From: Paracamarosporium sp. OC-R06-R3
Taxonomy: Eukaryota; Ascomycota; Dothideomycetes; Pleosporales; Didymosphaeriaceae
Direction of reading: 5' to 3'
DNA length: 64,000 nucleotides
Assembly: GCA_019828545.1 (NCBI GenBank)
Contig: JACVRA010000086.1
Coordinates: 340,503-404,502, forward strand
Part shown: piece by piece, positions 32,919 through 63,284 of the stretch
How positions within the stretch are numbered: position 1 is the stretch's first letter
How the letters are laid out: the number at the start of each line of letters is the position of its first letter
The notes under the pieces: generated by a model
What the model saw: only the letters and a program-made list of their open reading frames with translations
Told to the model about the DNA's origin: nothing
Database searches by the model: none
Position numbers and translations under genes: made by a program

Positions 32919-34793
32919 ATGGACCCTATCGACGCTGCAATTGAAGCTATTGAATCGCGAGAGCCTGGAGAATCTTTCAGCTATAGAAAGGTTGCAAAAG
33001 AATATGGCGTTACCCGATCTACGCTTACCCGAAGACACAAGGCGATTTTAGTACCCTATCCAGTCAAGGCGAACAATCAACAAAAGCTCACCCTCCAGCA
33101 AGAACAGGAGCTCGTACGCTATATTGAGCAGCTTACACAGAGAGGTCTTCTACCTACACGACAAATGATTCAGAATTTCGCAGCCTCTATAGTCAAAACT
33201 AGCGTTAGTATAGGCTGGGTTGATCAGTTCGTCAAGCGGAACAGCGCCTCGCTCATATCAAGATGGACGACTGGGATTGATAGCAATCGCCACAACGCTG
33301 ACTTAGAGGCAAAATATAAGCTCTATTTTCAACTTCTACAGCAGAAAATTAGCCAATACGATATCGAGCCTTGTAATACGTACAATATGGACGAAAAAGG
33401 CTTCTTACTTGGCATTACCTCTAGGTCAAAGAGGATCTTTAGCAGAGCTATGTACGAGCGTAAGGAAGTAAGGCAGGCAATCCAGGATGGAAGTCGCGAG
33501 TGGATTTCACTGCTGGCCTGTATATGCGCCGACGGATCAGCTCTAGACCCAGCGCTGATCTACCAGGCTAGCTCAGGAGGCCTACTATCAAGCTGGGTAG
33601 AGGATATCAACCCAGAAGACCACTCAGCCTTTATCACCTCGTCGCCCTCTGGCTGGACGAATAACGATATCGGACTTGCCTGGCTCGAGCAGGTATTCGA
33701 TCGCTGTACAAAGAAGAAAGCACGACGCTTATACCGACTTCTTATCCTCGATGGCCATGGATCTTACGTTACTATAGATTTTATCAACTACTGTGATTAG
33801 AATAGGATACTACTTGCTGTCCTACCTCCTCATTCGACGCATACGCTGCAGCCGCTCGACGTCTGCGTCTTCAAGTCTCTCTCTACTGCCTACTCAGCTG
33901 AGCTATCAGCTTTCCTATATAGAAGCCAGGGGCTAGCTCCAGTAGCTAAGAGAGACTTCTTTAGTCTATTCTGGAAGGCCTGGCAAAGCTCTATCGATCA
34001 ATCTCTACTCCTTTGAGCTTTTGAAGTAACTGGTATCTCGCCTCTAGAACCAGAGGCTATCCTTAAGAGGTTTACTAAACCTAGTCAATCTGACCAAGAA
34101 TCAAGAGAAAGCTCTACCTCAGTACTCAGCGCGTCAGACTGGAGGAAGATTGACCGGCTTCTTAACGCTGTAGCAGATGTAGGAGGTAGTAATAAGGCAA
34201 AGAAGCTAAGCCGTACAATCTACTTAATCTCTGTCCAAAATCAACTACTCCAACACGAAAATCAAGGCCTAAGAGAAGCTCTAGTAACTAAGAAGAAGCG
34301 CTAGAAGCAAGGCAGAGCTCTACCTCTCAAGAAACCTCATAACTATTACGGAGGCGCGATTTTCTGGTCACCTAGTAAGACGCAGAGAGCACGTGATCTC
34401 CTACAGCAGAAGGAGGCTCATGAGCAGCAGTTACAGGTTCAAAAAGCTAAGCAAGCTGAAGCTAGGAAGGCTAGCTAGCAGATGAAAGCTAGGTTACTAC
34501 AAGAAAAGCGCGTTGCGTGGGCTAAAGCTCAAAAAGCTCAAGCAAAGGAGAAGGCTAAACAGGCAGCTGAGCAAGCTTGATCTTAGAGAGCTTGAAAAGC
34601 TCAAAAGCAACTTCAGGATCGTATCAAAATTGCTAGAAAAGGAAAGAAGAAATCGTCAAGGGCCTCTAGGAAAGCTACTAAAGAGAGCCTACCTGCGCGC
34701 GCAGCTATAGATAGTCCTAAAGCTCTAGAGGGTACTACACCTCTACAATCGCGTAGAGGCCGCACAATCAAAACACCAAGTAGATTTCTATAG
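32919..34793 (+). pseudogene. Fot1/pogo-type transposase with seven internal stops
   Basis: One reading frame of 625 codons from ATG 32919 to TAG 34791-34793, interrupted by TAG or TGA at 33798, 34014, 34302, 34476, 34578, 34584 and 34593. The N-terminus has the Pipsqueak/CENP-B helix-turn-helix (SYRKVAKEYGVTRSTLTRR). The DDE region shows YNMDEKGFLLG (first Asp), LLILDGHGSYVT (second) and, after the first stop, HSTHTLQPLDVCVF (third). The tail is Lys/Ala-rich. The frame is otherwise open and without deletions. All stops are TAG or TGA, as expected if C-to-T changes hit Gln, Arg or Trp codons, fitting repeat-induced point mutation. It is non-functional as it stands. Confidence 0.9.
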
Positions 34794-57834: not shown

Positions 57835-58629
57835 TCACCAACTGAATGTTCCTCCAGTGGCGTTGCCAAGCTGGAGGCCTTTGTTGCCACTGCCTGAAAA
57901 GATAGTGTTACCATGGTGAATCGCATCGCCACTTGTCGCCACCTTCGTGATTGCTTGCTCCAACGGTTTGTCTTGAGCTGCGGCGATCTCTTTCAATACA
58001 GAGATGCTTTCGCCCTTACCTTCGCCTCCCACAATCTCCTCTACTTCTCTGTCGCAAAGCAGGCGCTGATTCGGCTGAGTATCCGGGAAGAGAGCACACA
58101 AGCCTTGGAGCAGATCATTGATATCTTTGATGAGTTGTTCGAACTGCTTCTTCTGAAACAACGCCCACTTTGTCTTTTTTAGGATACCTGGCTTAGATCG
58201 GTTTTGGCGATGGATGGCCAGCTCTTACATCTTGTTGTGCAGTCTCTTCATTGCCGGATCCAGGTGTGTCTGCGGGTCGTATACGGCAAGGCTTCCGTCC
58301 TGAGACGCCGTCTGACTCTTGTATTCGTCCGATACTCCTTGTGCTTTTTGGAATAGGGTTACAAGCTGCATAAGCAAGGCCTCCGCCTGTTCGGTTGCAT
58401 CTGACCCAAAACGCTCCTGAAGCGACTTCGTATCTCCATCCTCATCCAGACCTACGGACTTGCCCCACCTCGACAAGCGAAGTTTTGCGTTGTCAAGTTT
58501 GAGCTGGCATGTTTGGAAACTCTCTCCGAAATCGTGGCTGAGCTGGACGAGCTCAAAGCAGTCGAGTGCGACGTTGAACAAGCCAGCGAGGCCGAGGGCA
58601 CCCAAGGTAAGACCAACTACCTCTGCCAT
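57835..58629 (-). pseudogene. HeLo-domain cell-death effector with C-terminal amyloid-type motif, one internal stop
   Basis: A single minus-strand frame of 264 codons plus stop, from ATG 58629-58627 to TGA 57837-57835, interrupted by one TAA at 58227-58225 (codon 135). The first part, LGALGLAGLFNVALDCFELV and CQLKLDNAKLRLSRWGKSVG, is a HeLo domain as in HET-S. After the stop the same frame goes on with text that fits the second half of the domain (ILKKTKWALF, then LIKDINDLLQGLCALFP). The last residues GNKGLQLGNATGGTF form a motif with a G-L-Q-L-G core, matching one in the neighbouring NLR. No GT-AG intron keeping phase could be found around the TAA. HeLo proteins act on membranes in fungal cell death once their motif is templated. 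This allele may be dead, truncated or read through. Confidence 0.75.
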
Positions 58630-58770
58630 GTCGGTTCAGTGAAATGGAGATGAGTATGATGGTAAAGGCGAGAAAGCAAGAAGAGATACAAAAAAGTGGA
58701 GACGAGTATGATGGTAAAGGCGAGAGAGTAAGAAGAGATACAGAAAAGAGATCAGGAGATGTGCGCATTT

Positions 58771-58946
58771 ATCAACAACTGAGACACCAGCCAAGTTGGG
58801 ACGGTTCAGCATCACGCGAGGAGTGCAGCCATATTCTATTATACAATCCAATGGCGCACTGCAGCATCTCGACCACATTTGAATGTGGCAGCATATAGGT
58901 CGGATATAACTCTGGCTCTATCTACGTCGCTGCAGCCAGTAAGGTT
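58771..58946 (+). repeat. Tandem unit 1: decayed copy of NLR promoter and first exon
   Basis: 176 bp. It starts ATCAACAACTGAGACACCAG, as do units 2 and 3. Its ATG at 58851 opens a 15-codon frame (to 58898) resembling the NLR start (MAHCSISTTF) but stopping before the motif is complete. It ends with a relic of the exon 1 donor. Confidence 0.85.
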
Positions 58947-59112
58947 ATCAACAACTGAGACACCAGCCAAGTTAGGACAGTTCAGCATCATGCGTGAGTG
59001 CATCTACGTTCTGCTACATAATCTAATAGCGCATTACAATATCTCGACCACATTTGCAGGTGGCGGGAACTAGGGGTTGCAGGTCGGATACGTTGCTGTA
59101 GCCAGTAAGGTC
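58947..59112 (+). repeat. Tandem unit 2: decayed copy of NLR promoter and first exon
   Basis: 166 bp. The NLR start codon position reads ATA (59036-59038). A TAG replaces the Arg codon just before the GLQVG text, which is otherwise still legible. The changes are G-to-A and C-to-T, as RIP would leave. Confidence 0.85.
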
Positions 59113-59293
59113 ATCAACAACTGAGACACCAGCCAAGTTGGGACGGTTTAGCATTACCCGCGAGTGCAGCTACGTTCCACTACACAATCCAATGGCGCAC
59201 CGTAGCAGCTCGACCACATTTACAGGTAACGGCAACCGGGGGTTGCAGGTCGGATCCAACTTCGGCTCTATTCACACCTACGTAGCCGGTAAG
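59113..59293 (+). repeat. Tandem unit 3: intact NLR promoter-proximal DNA, first exon and donor
   Basis: About 181 bp, the copy used by the NLR gene. It contains the ATG at 59192, the motif-coding exon to 59288 and the GTAAG donor. Intergenic duplication with units 1 and 2 is clear by eye. Confidence 0.85.
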
Positions 59294-61587
59294 AGCCCGT
59301 TTCGGATCGGCCAACCCTGCCTAACTCTCTGCAGAGCGTCCCGAGACTCCACCACAGCCATCATGCTTCGTGCCGTTCCGTCGCAACTCGGACTTCATCG
59401 AGCCCGTGACGCCGCTAAAGCGGATACACTACCTATGCGCTATGCCAGGATATCGAGTTGCGCTGGTGGGCCTGGGTGGTTCAGGGTACGTTTAGCAGAA
59501 CTCTCAGGCCGGGGCGTGCACGTAACACATGACACAGGAAGTCGCAGCTAGCTATCGAGCACTGCTACCGCACTGCTGAGAAGTCGCCGAAGCCGTGGGT
59601 ATTCTGGGTACACGCCAGCGATACAGTTCGACTTGAGCAGAGTTTCCGCGATATAGCAGACCAGGCTAAGATACGTGACCGAAAAGACCCCCAGACAAAT
59701 GTGTTCAAGCTAGTGCACGACTGGCTCCGCGATAAGAAGAACGGGCCGTGGCTCGTGGTGCTTGACAACGCCGACGATGCTGCCGTGCTCTCTTCGCCAT
59801 TGGGTAACAGCCAATACAACGACAGCCTCAATACTCCCAAGCAATCTCTGTCCCAGTATCTGCCCTCATGCGATCACGGCTCAGTCCTCGTGACGAGTCG
59901 GACAAGCCTCGCGGCGAGGAAGATCGTGGAGAGAGGAGATATTGTAGAAGTCGGGCCGATGGATGATACGGCTGCACAGGATCTTCTGCGCAAGAAGCTC
60001 CGAGACAAGAGCGAGGACCTCGCCGACCTAGCAGCTGAACTGGATCGTATACCGCTCGCTCTTGTGCAGGCAGCCGCATACATTGAGGAACGAGCGCCGC
60101 GATGTTCGGTGCAGCAGTACCTTGCAGAGTACCGGCAGAGCGATAGCAGGAAGACGAAACTGCTGACCGACAATGATATCCATGACAAACTAGCCAGTAA
60201 ATCTGTCCTGACAACATGGCAAATATCATTTGACCATTTGCGCACCATCCGAAGCTCAGCAGCTGATCTGCTGTCGCTGATGAGCTTCTTCGCCCCACAG
60301 GGGATACAGGAAGCTCTACTCCACAGCAAGGGCAACGTGGCTGATGATAGTTTTGAGGACGATATTCTGGCTCTCCGCAACTACTCATTCATCACAATCA
60401 CTGCAGATAAAAACACGTTTACGATGCACAGCTTAGTGCAGCTAGCCATGCGCGAGTGGCTGGAAACTCAAGGCCACGTCGATAAGTGGAGGAAGAAGTT
60501 CATTTCCAATCTCTGCGAAGCGCTGCCTACGGGAGAATACAAGGACTGGGAGAAGTGCCGGACGCTGTTTCCGCATGCGAGGGCGGCATTGTCACAGCGG
60601 CCGAAAGACAAGCAGTCGCTTAATCAGTGGGCGCTCTTGCTGAACAATGCGGTGTCGTACGCATACACACAAGGAAGGGCAAGTGAGACAGAGGACATGT
60701 CGATGGCGTCGATGAAGGGTTGGGAAGAGGTGTTCGGAGAGGAGTCTGTGGAGACGTTGGGCGCCATGGACATGGTAGGACAAGCAATGCTACTCGGAGG
60801 CAAGTATAACGAGGCCGCGTCAATGTGCAGGCAGACGCTAGCGCTAAAGGAGAAGGTGTTTGGGCTTGAGCACCCAGACACGCTGGTGAGCATGAATAAC
60901 CTAGCAGGAGCGCTGAGGAACCAGGACAAATACGAGGAGGCTGAGTTGATGCATAGGCAAACGCTAGAGCTACAGAAGAAGGTGCTTGGGCCTAAGCACC
61001 TAGACACGCTGATGAGCATGAATAACCTAGCAATAGTGTTGGGGAACCAGGACAAGTACAAGGAGGCTGAGTTAATGCATAAGCAAACGCTGGAGCTAAG
61101 GAAGAAGGTGCTTGGGCCTAAGCACCCAGACACGCTGGCGAGCATGAATAACCTAGCAATAGTGCTAGGGAACCAGGGCAAGTACGAGGAGGCCAGGTCG
61201 ATAAATACACAGACGCTGGAGATATGTGAAGTGCTTGGGTTTGAGCATCCAGACACGCTGATGATTGTACGCGACCTCGCCAACATATTCGCAATGCAAC
61301 ATCGCTATAACGAATCTCTTGCTCTATACGAAAGAGCATGCACTGCGTACGACACTGTCCTTGGAAGCGATCATTCGAAAACCCGTGCGTGTCGCCGGGA
61401 CTATACTGAAACCAAAAAGCGTGCAGCTACCCACACAAATCGAGCATCGTGGTGTATGAGGTTGGCAATGATCTGCTTTAGTAGCTCAAAAACCTCTACG
61501 AGACAGGGAAGGTACGCAGGACGTCGTTTAAATCGGTGTGTAGCTGCTAATCTTGGTTCAGAATCCCATCATGGGAGTAATTCTTGA
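59192..61587 (+). CDS. NLR-type receptor: amyloid-type motif, NB-ARC, TPR repeats
   Basis: Three exons: 59192-59288, 59335-59485 and 59538-61587, about 765 residues. The N-terminus is a short motif, GNRGLQVGSNFGSI, close to the one ending the HeLo protein. A Pro-rich linker (ERPETPPQPS) and VPFRRNSDF follow, then the NB-ARC domain: Walker A GLGGSGKS (78-85, split by the second intron), Walker B WLVVLDNADD (154-163), GSVLVTSR, and the GLPL-like IPLALVQAAAYI. The winged-helix part has MHSLVQLAMREWLE. From about 490 on come TPR repeats of about 42 residues (A-x-x-M-x-x-Q-T-L-x-L-x-K-K-V-L-G). Known relatives form ligand-triggered oligomers that template an effector. The last 70 residues are unlike TPR and may hide another intron or be altered. 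Confidence 0.88.
60898..61275 (+). repeat. Near-identical 126-bp coding repeats (TPR)
   Basis: Three successive units beginning at 60898, 61024 and 61150, each starting with AACCTAGCA. The first two are 126 bp and very similar; the third is shorter and diverges in its second half. They encode NLR TPR units. High DNA identity suggests recent duplication or gene conversion. Confidence 0.85.
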
Positions 61588-62361
61588 TCTCGTAACAGAA
61601 ACCTAAGTCTAGCCTGAAGGAGGTTTGAGGGAAATAGCTTCTCAGCTTGTAGTGAGCTGAGTCAAGTCTGGCTCAGAGAGAGTCATGGAAAGTACCTTGG
61701 CATCTTGATATGAAAGGTTGATGGTTTGATGGTTCGATGGTTCGACGGCTCAATAGGCTGGAGAAGGTCTGATAGTTTTGCAGCTACTACATCTGCGAAA
61801 TAGAGGTTACTAGGAGTCAGAGCGACGTACGGCGTGAAGTGGGAAAGAGTTGGCACGCTGCTAAGCAGAGGAAACGAGGGGGAGCATATCTCCGCGTTCC
61901 TTCTTACTCCGCACGTGTCTACGCCACCAATCAAAGTTATTCAAAACCACTATTGAGAACAGCAAATGCTTTTTCGTCTACAGCTATAACCTTGCACCTC
62001 CTTTGTGTGATGACTAAGCAATTAGCGTTACAAGGACAAGCAAACGCGTACGTAGGGTAATAGTATAGTAAGCTAGGCAGATCGTCCAGCGCAAACGAGT
62101 CATATGTGAGATAGGCCTTTGTCTAGCGACCCGAGCTAGGTTGCGTAGGTATGGGAAAAATTCGAGCGTCTAGCACAGCTACAAGCCTAATGAATACACT
62201 GGAAAGCCGTAAGCTTGGTTTGCACTTTGATATCTATACTTGCACTAGCTAAGGTTGAAAAGTATTTCAATAAGTTTTACTATCTAAGGTGGTCTCGCAT
62301 GAATTTGTGGGCCACAGCACACACAAAGCTTACAATAACTTCCTAGCCTAGTAGCAAGGCT
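61588..62361. other. Intergenic, no supported gene
   Basis: About 0.8 kb between the convergent NLR and F-box-like copy C genes. AT-rich in part, with no motif. Confidence 0.5.
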
Positions 62362-63284
62362 CTACGGCTTATGACTCCAAAGACGGTTGCATGTGAAATT
62401 GTTTATGCGAAACTCGCCGAATTTCGTATCCTCCCATACAACCCAAGTGTACTCCCCGTCAGACCATACAGGTCCCAACGCCAGATTCTCAAGTAGATAA
62501 CGCTGAGAATCCACTGACGCGTCAATCAGGTCACGGTTCAACGCGAGCCTCGTACAATCATGCTCAAAATCGTAGCAGAGTGCGTTTAACTTGCAGGGTG
62601 TCTCTCGGAGCACCGCCAACCACTGCGCGCAGTCGTGTCGTAGAAGCCTATCAATCTTTGCCTTTGGATTCCCATAATTTCCGAAAACCGGTTGCGTGAG
62701 GATGGGTCGACGCGGCGTCTGCTCAATCAAGCCAGTTTTGCATTGGAACTGGTCAGGAAATCGGGCTTTTGCTCGCAATATGGGAAGAATGTTAATCGCG
62801 GATGTTTTCTCGTGACAAACTAGATGGCCATGAGAGTGTTTGTGGTAAATAGTGGGTACGCGAATTTCGAGATACACAACTAGAGCGAAGTTGAAGATTG
62901 GAGGGCTATCTCCATCAATGAAATCTTTGATGAAGTCGTCAAGATCAGCAAAACGTACCGATACACGGCCATTATGCTGATATACTGTGATATTATCAGC
63001 TAGTGATTTAGGCTCTCTTTGAGAATTTACTGACTAGAGAGGTATTCCATCCGAATTCGATGGCACGTATGTGCCAAGCCGTTGTAAGTCTCCTCGTCAC
63101 CTTCCCTCCGGCGTTTGATCATGAGTGTCTCACTGTTGTCTAGAGCGTGGTAGTGGTAAATGCGGTTCCGGATCTCTATATGTTATTAGCATATTTTAAT
63201 GCAGCAGTGCACAAAGTACTACTTACCTCCTGGCAACTTCAAGAATCCCCAGTCTTCCACATTAGGTTCCTGTTTCGTGTCCAT
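62362..63284 (-). CDS. F-box-like family protein, divergent copy C
   Basis: Minus-strand exons 63284-63227, 63175-63035 and 62984-62362; introns 51 and 50 bp; about 273 residues. The first intron splits LPG-E as in copies A and B at 30.6 and 32 kb, giving WGFLKLPGEIRNRIYHYHAL. The second intron falls after EYLS, again the same place as in A and B. LAHTCHRIRMEYLS and INILPILRAKARF match VCRQIRxEYLP and VDLLPILRAQ in the others. It is a distant paralogue. The role is unknown; the second donor (GTCAGT) is weaker than usual. Confidence 0.78.

What the first reader, a model, noticed from the sequence alone, without database searches (positions are those of the whole stretch)
57835..61587. Head-to-head HeLo effector and NLR sharing a G-L-Q-(L/V)-G amyloid-type motif
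Seen: the minus-strand HeLo protein ends in GNKGLQLGNATGGTF and the plus-strand NB-ARC/TPR protein begins with GNRGLQVGSNFGSI, with start codons 562 bp apart. Known: in fungal NLR/effector pairs (NWD2/HET-S and the PP-motif system of Chaetomium globosum) a receptor N-terminal motif folds as amyloid and templates the effector's C-terminal motif. PP-motifs have a G-x-Q-x-G core related to animal RHIM. Inferred: this is a PP/RHIM-like cell-death module, here joining a HET-S-type HeLo domain to a TPR receptor.
Basis: partly seen in the sequence, partly recalled or inferred. Interest (0 to 1): 0.92.

Follow-up and report, generated by a model that had tools for sequence, protein, structure and literature searches.

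The report
Broken fungal amyloid cell-death gene pair
A fungal immune receptor sits head-to-head with a cell-death gene that shares its amyloid-type tag, a pairing already known from other fungi, but here the cell-death gene is cut by a stop codon, so the switch is probably being lost.

Summary
The pair is real. On the minus strand lies a HeLo (HET-S-type) gene; 562 bp away, on the plus strand, a P-loop/TPR NLR gene. Both carry the PP amyloid motif (Pfam Ses_B; below cut-off on the HeLo side). Ses_B scores above noise at only three places found in the 43-Mb assembly, all within about 1.4 kb here.

(1) The HeLo frame has an in-frame TAA (58222-58224, codon 135) that removes the rest of HeLo and the motif. 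All 111 aligned relatives have a residue there, no Met follows it, and none of 25 tested introns that skip it is convincing. (2) The NLR's motif is its own first exon, tandemly triplicated; the two upstream copies carry stops. (3) A second HeLo copy about 5.5 kb away has no motif.

The architecture is not new. PP was defined in 2012 on HeLo-PP genes next to PP-NB-ARC-TPR genes in Arthroderma (PMC3321046). Of 111 HeLo hits, 89 carry Ses_B, and 12 share a contig with a relative of this NLR.

Verdict: a new member of a known kind, with the effector most likely lost and the receptor frame still open. Amyloid formation is inferred, not shown.

The parts
57835..58629 (-). HeLo-PP effector gene, one exon of 265 codons including the final stop, interrupted once
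   Evidence: PF14479 105.4 + 48.6 bits on the parts either side of the stop; gene reading; most listed relatives are about 264 aa long
58222..58224 (-). in-frame TAA stop (codon 135) inside the HeLo domain
   Evidence: all 111 aligned relatives have a residue at this column, 104 of them the same one
57838..57909 (-). PP (Ses_B) motif at the end of the HeLo frame, downstream of the stop
   Evidence: Ses_B 19.6 bits, below the 23.2 cut-off; second-best place in the genome search, 21.3 bits
58768..58944 (+). decayed copy 1 of the NLR 5' segment + exon 1 + splice donor; TAG in the motif frame; keeps VGYNSGSI
   Evidence: repeat families D3, D4, D7; unit alignment
58944..59110 (+). decayed copy 2 of the same unit; no ATG, TAG in the motif frame; still scores 19.2 bits for Ses_B
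59192..59288 (+). NLR exon 1 (97 bases), encodes the PP motif
   Evidence: Ses_B 31.9 bits, above cut-off; gene model; starts of relatives' proteins align
59289..59334 (+). NLR intron 1 (GTAAG...CTAAC...CAG), model
   Evidence: two predicted relatives (P0124, P0130) carry an insertion at this place that looks like a read-through intron
59335..59485 (+). NLR exon 2: linker and first half of the P-loop
   Evidence: collinear with P0112
59486..59537 (+). NLR intron 2, model
59538..61587 (+). NLR exon 3: rest of the nucleotide-binding domain, DUF7779, TPR array, stop
   Evidence: whole protein 63% identical to P0112 over 716 columns, no frame break
60801..61224 (+). 126-base (42-aa) TPR repeats, 79-83% alike at DNA level
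   Evidence: repeat family D1; TPR_12/TPR_10

Best explanation
This is a locus of the known PP-motif NLR/HeLo kind, in a Pleosporales fungus, caught after loss of its effector. In intact systems of this kind the receptor is thought to oligomerise on ligand binding through its nucleotide-binding domain. Its N-terminal PP motifs then stack into an amyloid seed, which templates the PP motif at the end of the neighbouring HeLo protein and releases HeLo as a membrane-permeabilising cell-death domain. In this genome the receptor gene still has an open frame, but the HeLo gene stops at codon 135, so it would make a 134-residue stub without the rest of HeLo and without the motif. A second HeLo copy about 5.5 kb away has no motif, and two extra copies of the receptor's motif exon have decayed. 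Shown here: genes, motif class, stop, duplications, linkage in relatives. Inferred: amyloid fold, templating, cell death, loss of function.
For: Ses_B in both genes and at no other place above noise except a decayed exon copy beside them. HeLo by Pfam and by match to solved HET-s/S chains. Receptor collinear with relatives, no frame break. In one search, 89 of 111 hits carry PF17046. In one search, 91 of 111 HeLo hits have GxQxG in the last 50 residues against 0 of 426 background windows; 83 of the 120 listed NLR hits (of 770 found) have it in the first 60 residues against 10 of 1275. Linkage: comparing all 111 HeLo hits with all 120 listed NLR hits, 12 HeLo hits lie on a contig of the same length as an NLR hit, in each case with the same species name; five of those contigs are under 100 kb. 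Stop: codon 135; 111 of 111 aligned relatives have a residue there. No Met after it in frame; of 25 frame-preserving GT-AG removals (40-200 bases) the only one with a consensus-like donor is 180 bases and takes 36 positions conserved at 90% or more. The only other DNA match in the assembly is the 66%-identical partial one at C327:404605-405121. Published architecture and mechanism: PMC3321046 (section 8 read), PMC7885112 and PMC4344463 (passages).
Against: One stop in an otherwise open frame could be an assembly error or a recent or polymorphic allele; no reads were available. The HeLo sequence is not clearly decaying otherwise: its identity to relatives (best 61%) is like the receptor's (63%), and its 9 of 80 changes at near-invariant positions exceed the median of 1 but match other divergent members (up to 14 of 84). 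The HeLo-side motif is below the Ses_B cut-off and fails the relaxed PP pattern that the NLR side passes. Of the 12 linked pairs only 6 show GxQxG in both partners: two NLR proteins are partial without an N-terminus, one NLR has GIQVE, one HeLo has GLNLG, and two HeLo proteins as predicted lack a full motif. No amyloid or cell-death assay was possible.
Confidence: 0.78

Rival explanations
1. The effector is intact in the organism and the TAA is a sequencing or assembly error, so the locus is an ordinary working PP pair.
For: Only one lesion in 264 codons and no frameshift; same length as most relatives; receptor frame open.
Against: The sequence as given has the stop; the second HeLo copy nearby has no motif and two exon-1 copies are decayed, so decay is the local trend.
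Confidence: 0.15
2. The stop is skipped by splicing, so a shortened HeLo-PP protein is made.
For: The stop overlaps a GTAAGA string that resembles a fungal splice donor; 25 frame-preserving GT-AG removals exist.
Against: The one using that donor holds a branch-like site but removes 180 bases and 36 positions conserved at 90% or more; the 12 printed with fewest conserved losses each lose 13 or more such positions and hold no CTNAY branch-like site (the other 12 were not printed). No relative has a gap at the stop column.
Confidence: 0.05
3. The shared GxQxG segments are chance low-complexity matches, not a signalling motif.
For: The motif is short, and the HeLo copy scores below the Ses_B cut-off.
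Against: The only three places above noise in the genome search fall within about 1.4 kb; motif position is shared by relatives and 12 of them show linkage to the NLR family.
Confidence: 0.02

Closest known systems
HeLo-PP / PP-NB-ARC-TPR gene pairs of Arthroderma otae and A. gypseum (PMC3321046, section 8 read)
   Same: HeLo effector with a C-terminal PP motif, adjacent to an NB-ARC/TPR receptor with an N-terminal PP motif; the motif was defined on these pairs together with Goodbye-HeLo and sesB genes
   Different: Another group of fungi; here the effector frame is broken and the receptor's motif exon is in a partly decayed tandem array
HELLP/PNT1 of Podospora anserina and HELLP/SBP/PNT1 of Chaetomium globosum (PMC7885112, passages)
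   Same: PP motif, NB-ARC-TPR receptor, adjacent cell-death gene; prion formation and activation shown by experiment there
   Different: Effector there has a HeLo-like (HELL) domain, here HeLo PF14479; no further Ses_B-bearing partner found in this genome
NWD2/HET-S of P. anserina (PMC4344463, passages)
   Same: HeLo effector and NLR divergently transcribed, frames about 0.6 kb apart there, 562 bp here; one partner is a pseudogene in some strains
   Different: HET-s motif (two repeats), NACHT-WD receptor; there the receptor is the pseudogene in het-s strains, here the effector is the broken gene
HeLo-PP proteins of Pleosporales and a few other fungi (hits, e.g. Pyrenophora, Alternaria, Paraphaeosphaeria)
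   Same: Same domains, similar length and motif; 12 linked by contig to relatives of the same NLR
   Different: None is interrupted at this position in the alignment

Membership tests
PP-motif NLR/HeLo amyloid-signalling pair | PP (Ses_B) motif at the NLR N-terminus | tested here: met
   31.9 bits against cut-off 23.2; passes the relaxed PP pattern
PP-motif NLR/HeLo amyloid-signalling pair | PP motif at the effector C-terminus | tested here: inconclusive
   19.6 bits, below cut-off, fails the relaxed pattern, but second-best place in the genome search and aligned with relatives that pass
PP-motif NLR/HeLo amyloid-signalling pair | HeLo domain in the effector | tested here: met
   PF14479 in both parts; PDB 2wvn match of the first part
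[quoted passage not shown]
   Below Pfam cut-off on exon 3; P-loop readable in the spliced protein; many listed relatives carry PF00931
PP-motif NLR/HeLo amyloid-signalling pair | TPR array in the receptor | tested here: met
   TPR_12 215.6 bits; 126-base repeats
PP-motif NLR/HeLo amyloid-signalling pair | adjacent genes in this genome | tested here: met
   562 bp between start codons
PP-motif NLR/HeLo amyloid-signalling pair | gene pair conserved in relatives | tested here: inconclusive
   12 of 111 HeLo hits (27 with a species name) share a contig length and species with a listed NLR hit; distance and orientation were not seen
PP-motif NLR/HeLo amyloid-signalling pair | effector translated through to its motif | tested here: not met
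   TAA at codon 135
PP-motif NLR/HeLo amyloid-signalling pair | motifs form amyloid and cross-seed; HeLo kills on activation | not testable with these tools
   needs peptides and cells
HET-s/HRAM pair | two HET-s-type repeats at the effector C-terminus (PF11558) | tested here: not met
   No PF11558 match in the window proteins scanned or the genome (that search had no positive control)
Animal RHIM | homology or shared fibril fold beyond the GxQxG core | not tested
   Only the core is shared; partial RHIM-PP cross-seeding is reported for Podospora HELLP (PMC7885112, passages)
Sigma-motif pair | NACHT_sigma motif | not tested
   No such family among the Pfam hits; the genome was not searched for it

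The most novel reading that the evidence does not exclude
The receptor's amyloid motif, carried on its own small first exon, evolves by tandem exon duplication and replacement: the exon in use reads VGSNFGSI (0 of 120 listed relatives), while a decayed upstream copy keeps VGYNSGSI (7 of 120). The switch of motif, the loss of the matching effector and the loss of the motif from the second HeLo copy would then be linked steps in breaking or re-wiring a prion-like signalling pair.
Probability: 0.15. Interest if true: 0.5.

Novelty: new member of a known kind. Interest (0 to 1): 0.33.

Why it matters
As a type, the pair has been known since 2012, so it adds a member, and the searches outline a HeLo-PP family, mostly in Pleosporales by the species named, with linkage to PP receptors. 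The more useful part is the decay. In Podospora the receptor nwd2 is a pseudogene where HET-S has become HET-s (PMC4344463, passages); here the effector is the broken gene and the receptor frame is open. If resequencing confirms the stop, the locus allows a test of how such pairs come apart and whether an orphan receptor is kept for another partner.

Tried and rejected
Looked for another PP partner in the genome (for example a Ses_B-bearing lipase): none above noise. Looked for HET-s-type motifs: none, but that search had no positive control. Tested splice bypass of the stop: none convincing. RIP as cause of the stop: dinucleotide indices of the HeLo gene do not show it (TA/AT 0.61, (CA+TG)/(AC+GT) 1.37). 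Relaxed selection on HeLo: inconclusive; dN/dS between the two HeLo copies is 0.39/0.70, codon-position differences 71, 54, 83 over 206 codons. Co-evolution of the two motifs across pairs was not computed; only 6 of the 12 linked pairs show GxQxG in both partners. No structure was predicted. The first linkage count used 24 of 27 named HeLo hits (Xylaria, Lasiodiplodia and Fusarium left out) and 36 of 120 listed NLR hits; one search repeated it on all 111 and all 120, with the same 12 HeLo hits.
Full report
What is there. The window comes from a 43-Mb fungal assembly (G000, contig C327). One GH16 gene on the same contig, about 3.8 kb beyond the window, is 89% identical to genes of Pseudopithomyces chartarum and Kalmusia sp.; with recalled taxonomy this places the fungus in Pleosporales. 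Two genes are divergently arranged. The minus-strand gene (58629 to 57835) encodes HeLo: PF14479 at 105.4 bits before and 48.6 bits after an in-frame stop, and the part before the stop matches the solved HET-s/S HeLo chains at E 1.9e-22. The plus-strand gene has three exons in my model (59192-59288, 59335-59485, 59538-61587) and encodes 765 residues: PP motif, P-loop domain, DUF7779 and TPRs.

The shared motif. The PP motif is captured by Pfam Ses_B (PMC8086366, passages). It scores 31.9 bits in NLR exon 1 and 19.6 bits, under the 23.2 cut-off, at the HeLo end. A six-frame search of the genome at E up to 10 gave four places: 34.2 (NLR exon 1), 21.3 (HeLo end), 19.2 (a decayed duplicate of exon 1) and 13.4 bits (noise on another contig); the same lax search rang in 1 of 14 control genomes, under the cut-off. 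So the match is not chance, although the HeLo-side copy is the weaker one: it fails a relaxed form of the published pattern that the NLR side passes.

The missed lesion. TAA at 58222-58224 closes the HeLo frame at codon 135 of 265. In an alignment of all 111 hits every relative has a residue at that column, 104 the same one. There is no in-frame Met after the stop. Of 25 frame-preserving GT-AG removals (40-200 bases) that would skip the stop, one starts at a consensus-like donor; it holds a branch-like site but would remove 180 bases with 36 positions conserved at 90% or more. The 12 printed with the fewest conserved losses each lose 13 or more such positions and hold no CTNAY site; the other 12 were not printed. 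The simplest reading is a nonsense mutation; an assembly error cannot be excluded without reads. Signs of wider decay of the HeLo frame are inconclusive: 9 of 80 near-invariant positions are changed, against a median of 1 and a maximum of 14 of 84 among 91 near-full-length relatives, and identity to relatives (best 61%) is like the receptor's (63%).

The neighbourhood. Upstream of the NLR start lie two further copies of a unit made of 5' flank, exon 1 and the first bases of intron 1 (58768-58944, 58944-59110), 79-83% alike, differing mainly by transitions (21:6, 28:9, 29:6). Both have a TAG in the motif frame. Copy 1 keeps VGYNSGSI, found in 7 of the 120 listed NLR relatives; the live exon reads VGSNFGSI, found in none of them. 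Two predicted relatives (P0124, P0130) carry an insertion at the place of intron 1 that looks like a read-through intron, so a motif-only first exon is probably shared by at least some of the family. Beyond the window, at C327:404605-405121, lies a second HeLo copy (66% DNA identity; PF14479 101.7 bits). Its frame departs from the family before the motif and has no Ses_B match. About 1 kb further is a HET-like frame (PF06985 22.3 against 22.5).

Relatives and pairing. Of the 111 HeLo hits, 89 carry PF17046 in the precomputed Pfam column and 91 have GxQxG in the last 50 residues, against 0 of 426 background windows. The NLR search (first 170 residues) gave 770 hits, 120 of them listed; 83 of those 120 have GxQxG in the first 60 residues, against 10 of 1275 background windows. 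All 12 are among the 27 HeLo hits that carry a species name. Six of the 12 pairs show GxQxG in both partners; in the others a protein is partial or the core is altered or missing. The remaining named HeLo hits may have a partner outside the 120 listed, or none. This shows linkage; distance and orientation in relatives were not seen, because no DNA of relatives was found.

What is known. PP was defined in 2012 from HeLo-PP genes next to PP-NB-ARC-TPR genes in Arthroderma, with Goodbye-HeLo and sesB genes (PMC3321046, section 8 read). PMC4518210 (passages) again mentions PP as a single copy in HeLo proteins. PMC9815663 (passages) found its PP motif in 296 NLR sequences, with effectors both pore-forming and enzymatic. 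PMC7885112 (passages) shows prion formation and activation for Podospora HELLP/PNT1. PMC4344463 (passages) describes nwd2/het-S as divergent with about 0.6 kb between frames, and nwd2 as a pseudogene in het-s strains. I searched for reports of a broken HeLo effector (20 of 41 papers listed) and of motif-exon duplication in fungal NLRs (20 of 34 listed); no listed title reports either. Only listings and passages were seen, and most subscription journals are not held.

Mechanism and verdict. By analogy with the tested systems, an intact pair would work by receptor oligomerisation, stacking of PP motifs and templating of the effector's motif, which frees HeLo to permeabilise membranes. In this genome the last step most likely cannot occur, because the effector stops before its motif and the only other close HeLo copy found has none. 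The receptor is then an orphan, at least for PP-tagged partners. The finding is a new member of a known kind, with an unusual state of decay; interest is moderate.

Noticed in passing
beyond the window: G000:C327:404605-405121 (L013 about 1103-1619, minus): Second HeLo copy of the same family, 66% identical DNA, 11 residues missing in mid-domain and no PP motif
   Followed up: partly
L013:2577-3695 minus (G000:C327:406079-407197): HET-like frame (PF06985, just under cut-off) near the HeLo copy: a small cluster of incompatibility-type genes
   Followed up: no
window 58768-59110: Two decayed tandem copies of the NLR's motif-coding first exon with its flank and splice donor
   Followed up: partly
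P0028 (metagenome protein, 421 aa, 1450-base contig): Uninterrupted TPR-HeLo-Ses_B frame: either a real fusion of receptor repeats to the effector or a gene-prediction artefact
   Followed up: no
P0034, P0044, P0063 (Ophiobolus disseminans, Alternaria burnsii, A. alternata): HeLo proteins linked to an NLR relative whose predicted ends have an altered or missing PP core: gene-model errors, or effector decay elsewhere too
   Followed up: no
window 34001-34500 and 62001-62500: RIP-like dinucleotide bias (TA/AT 2.33 and 1.48)
   Followed up: no
own genome, e.g. C113:13902, C244:92176, C99:38720: Other NLRs 53-58% identical to this one, several with in-frame stops; no Ses_B match was found at these places
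   Followed up: no
P0110 (Lasiodiplodia theobromae): HeLo protein outside Pleosporales with a PP-like end (Ses_B 19.2 bits, below cut-off)
   Followed up: no
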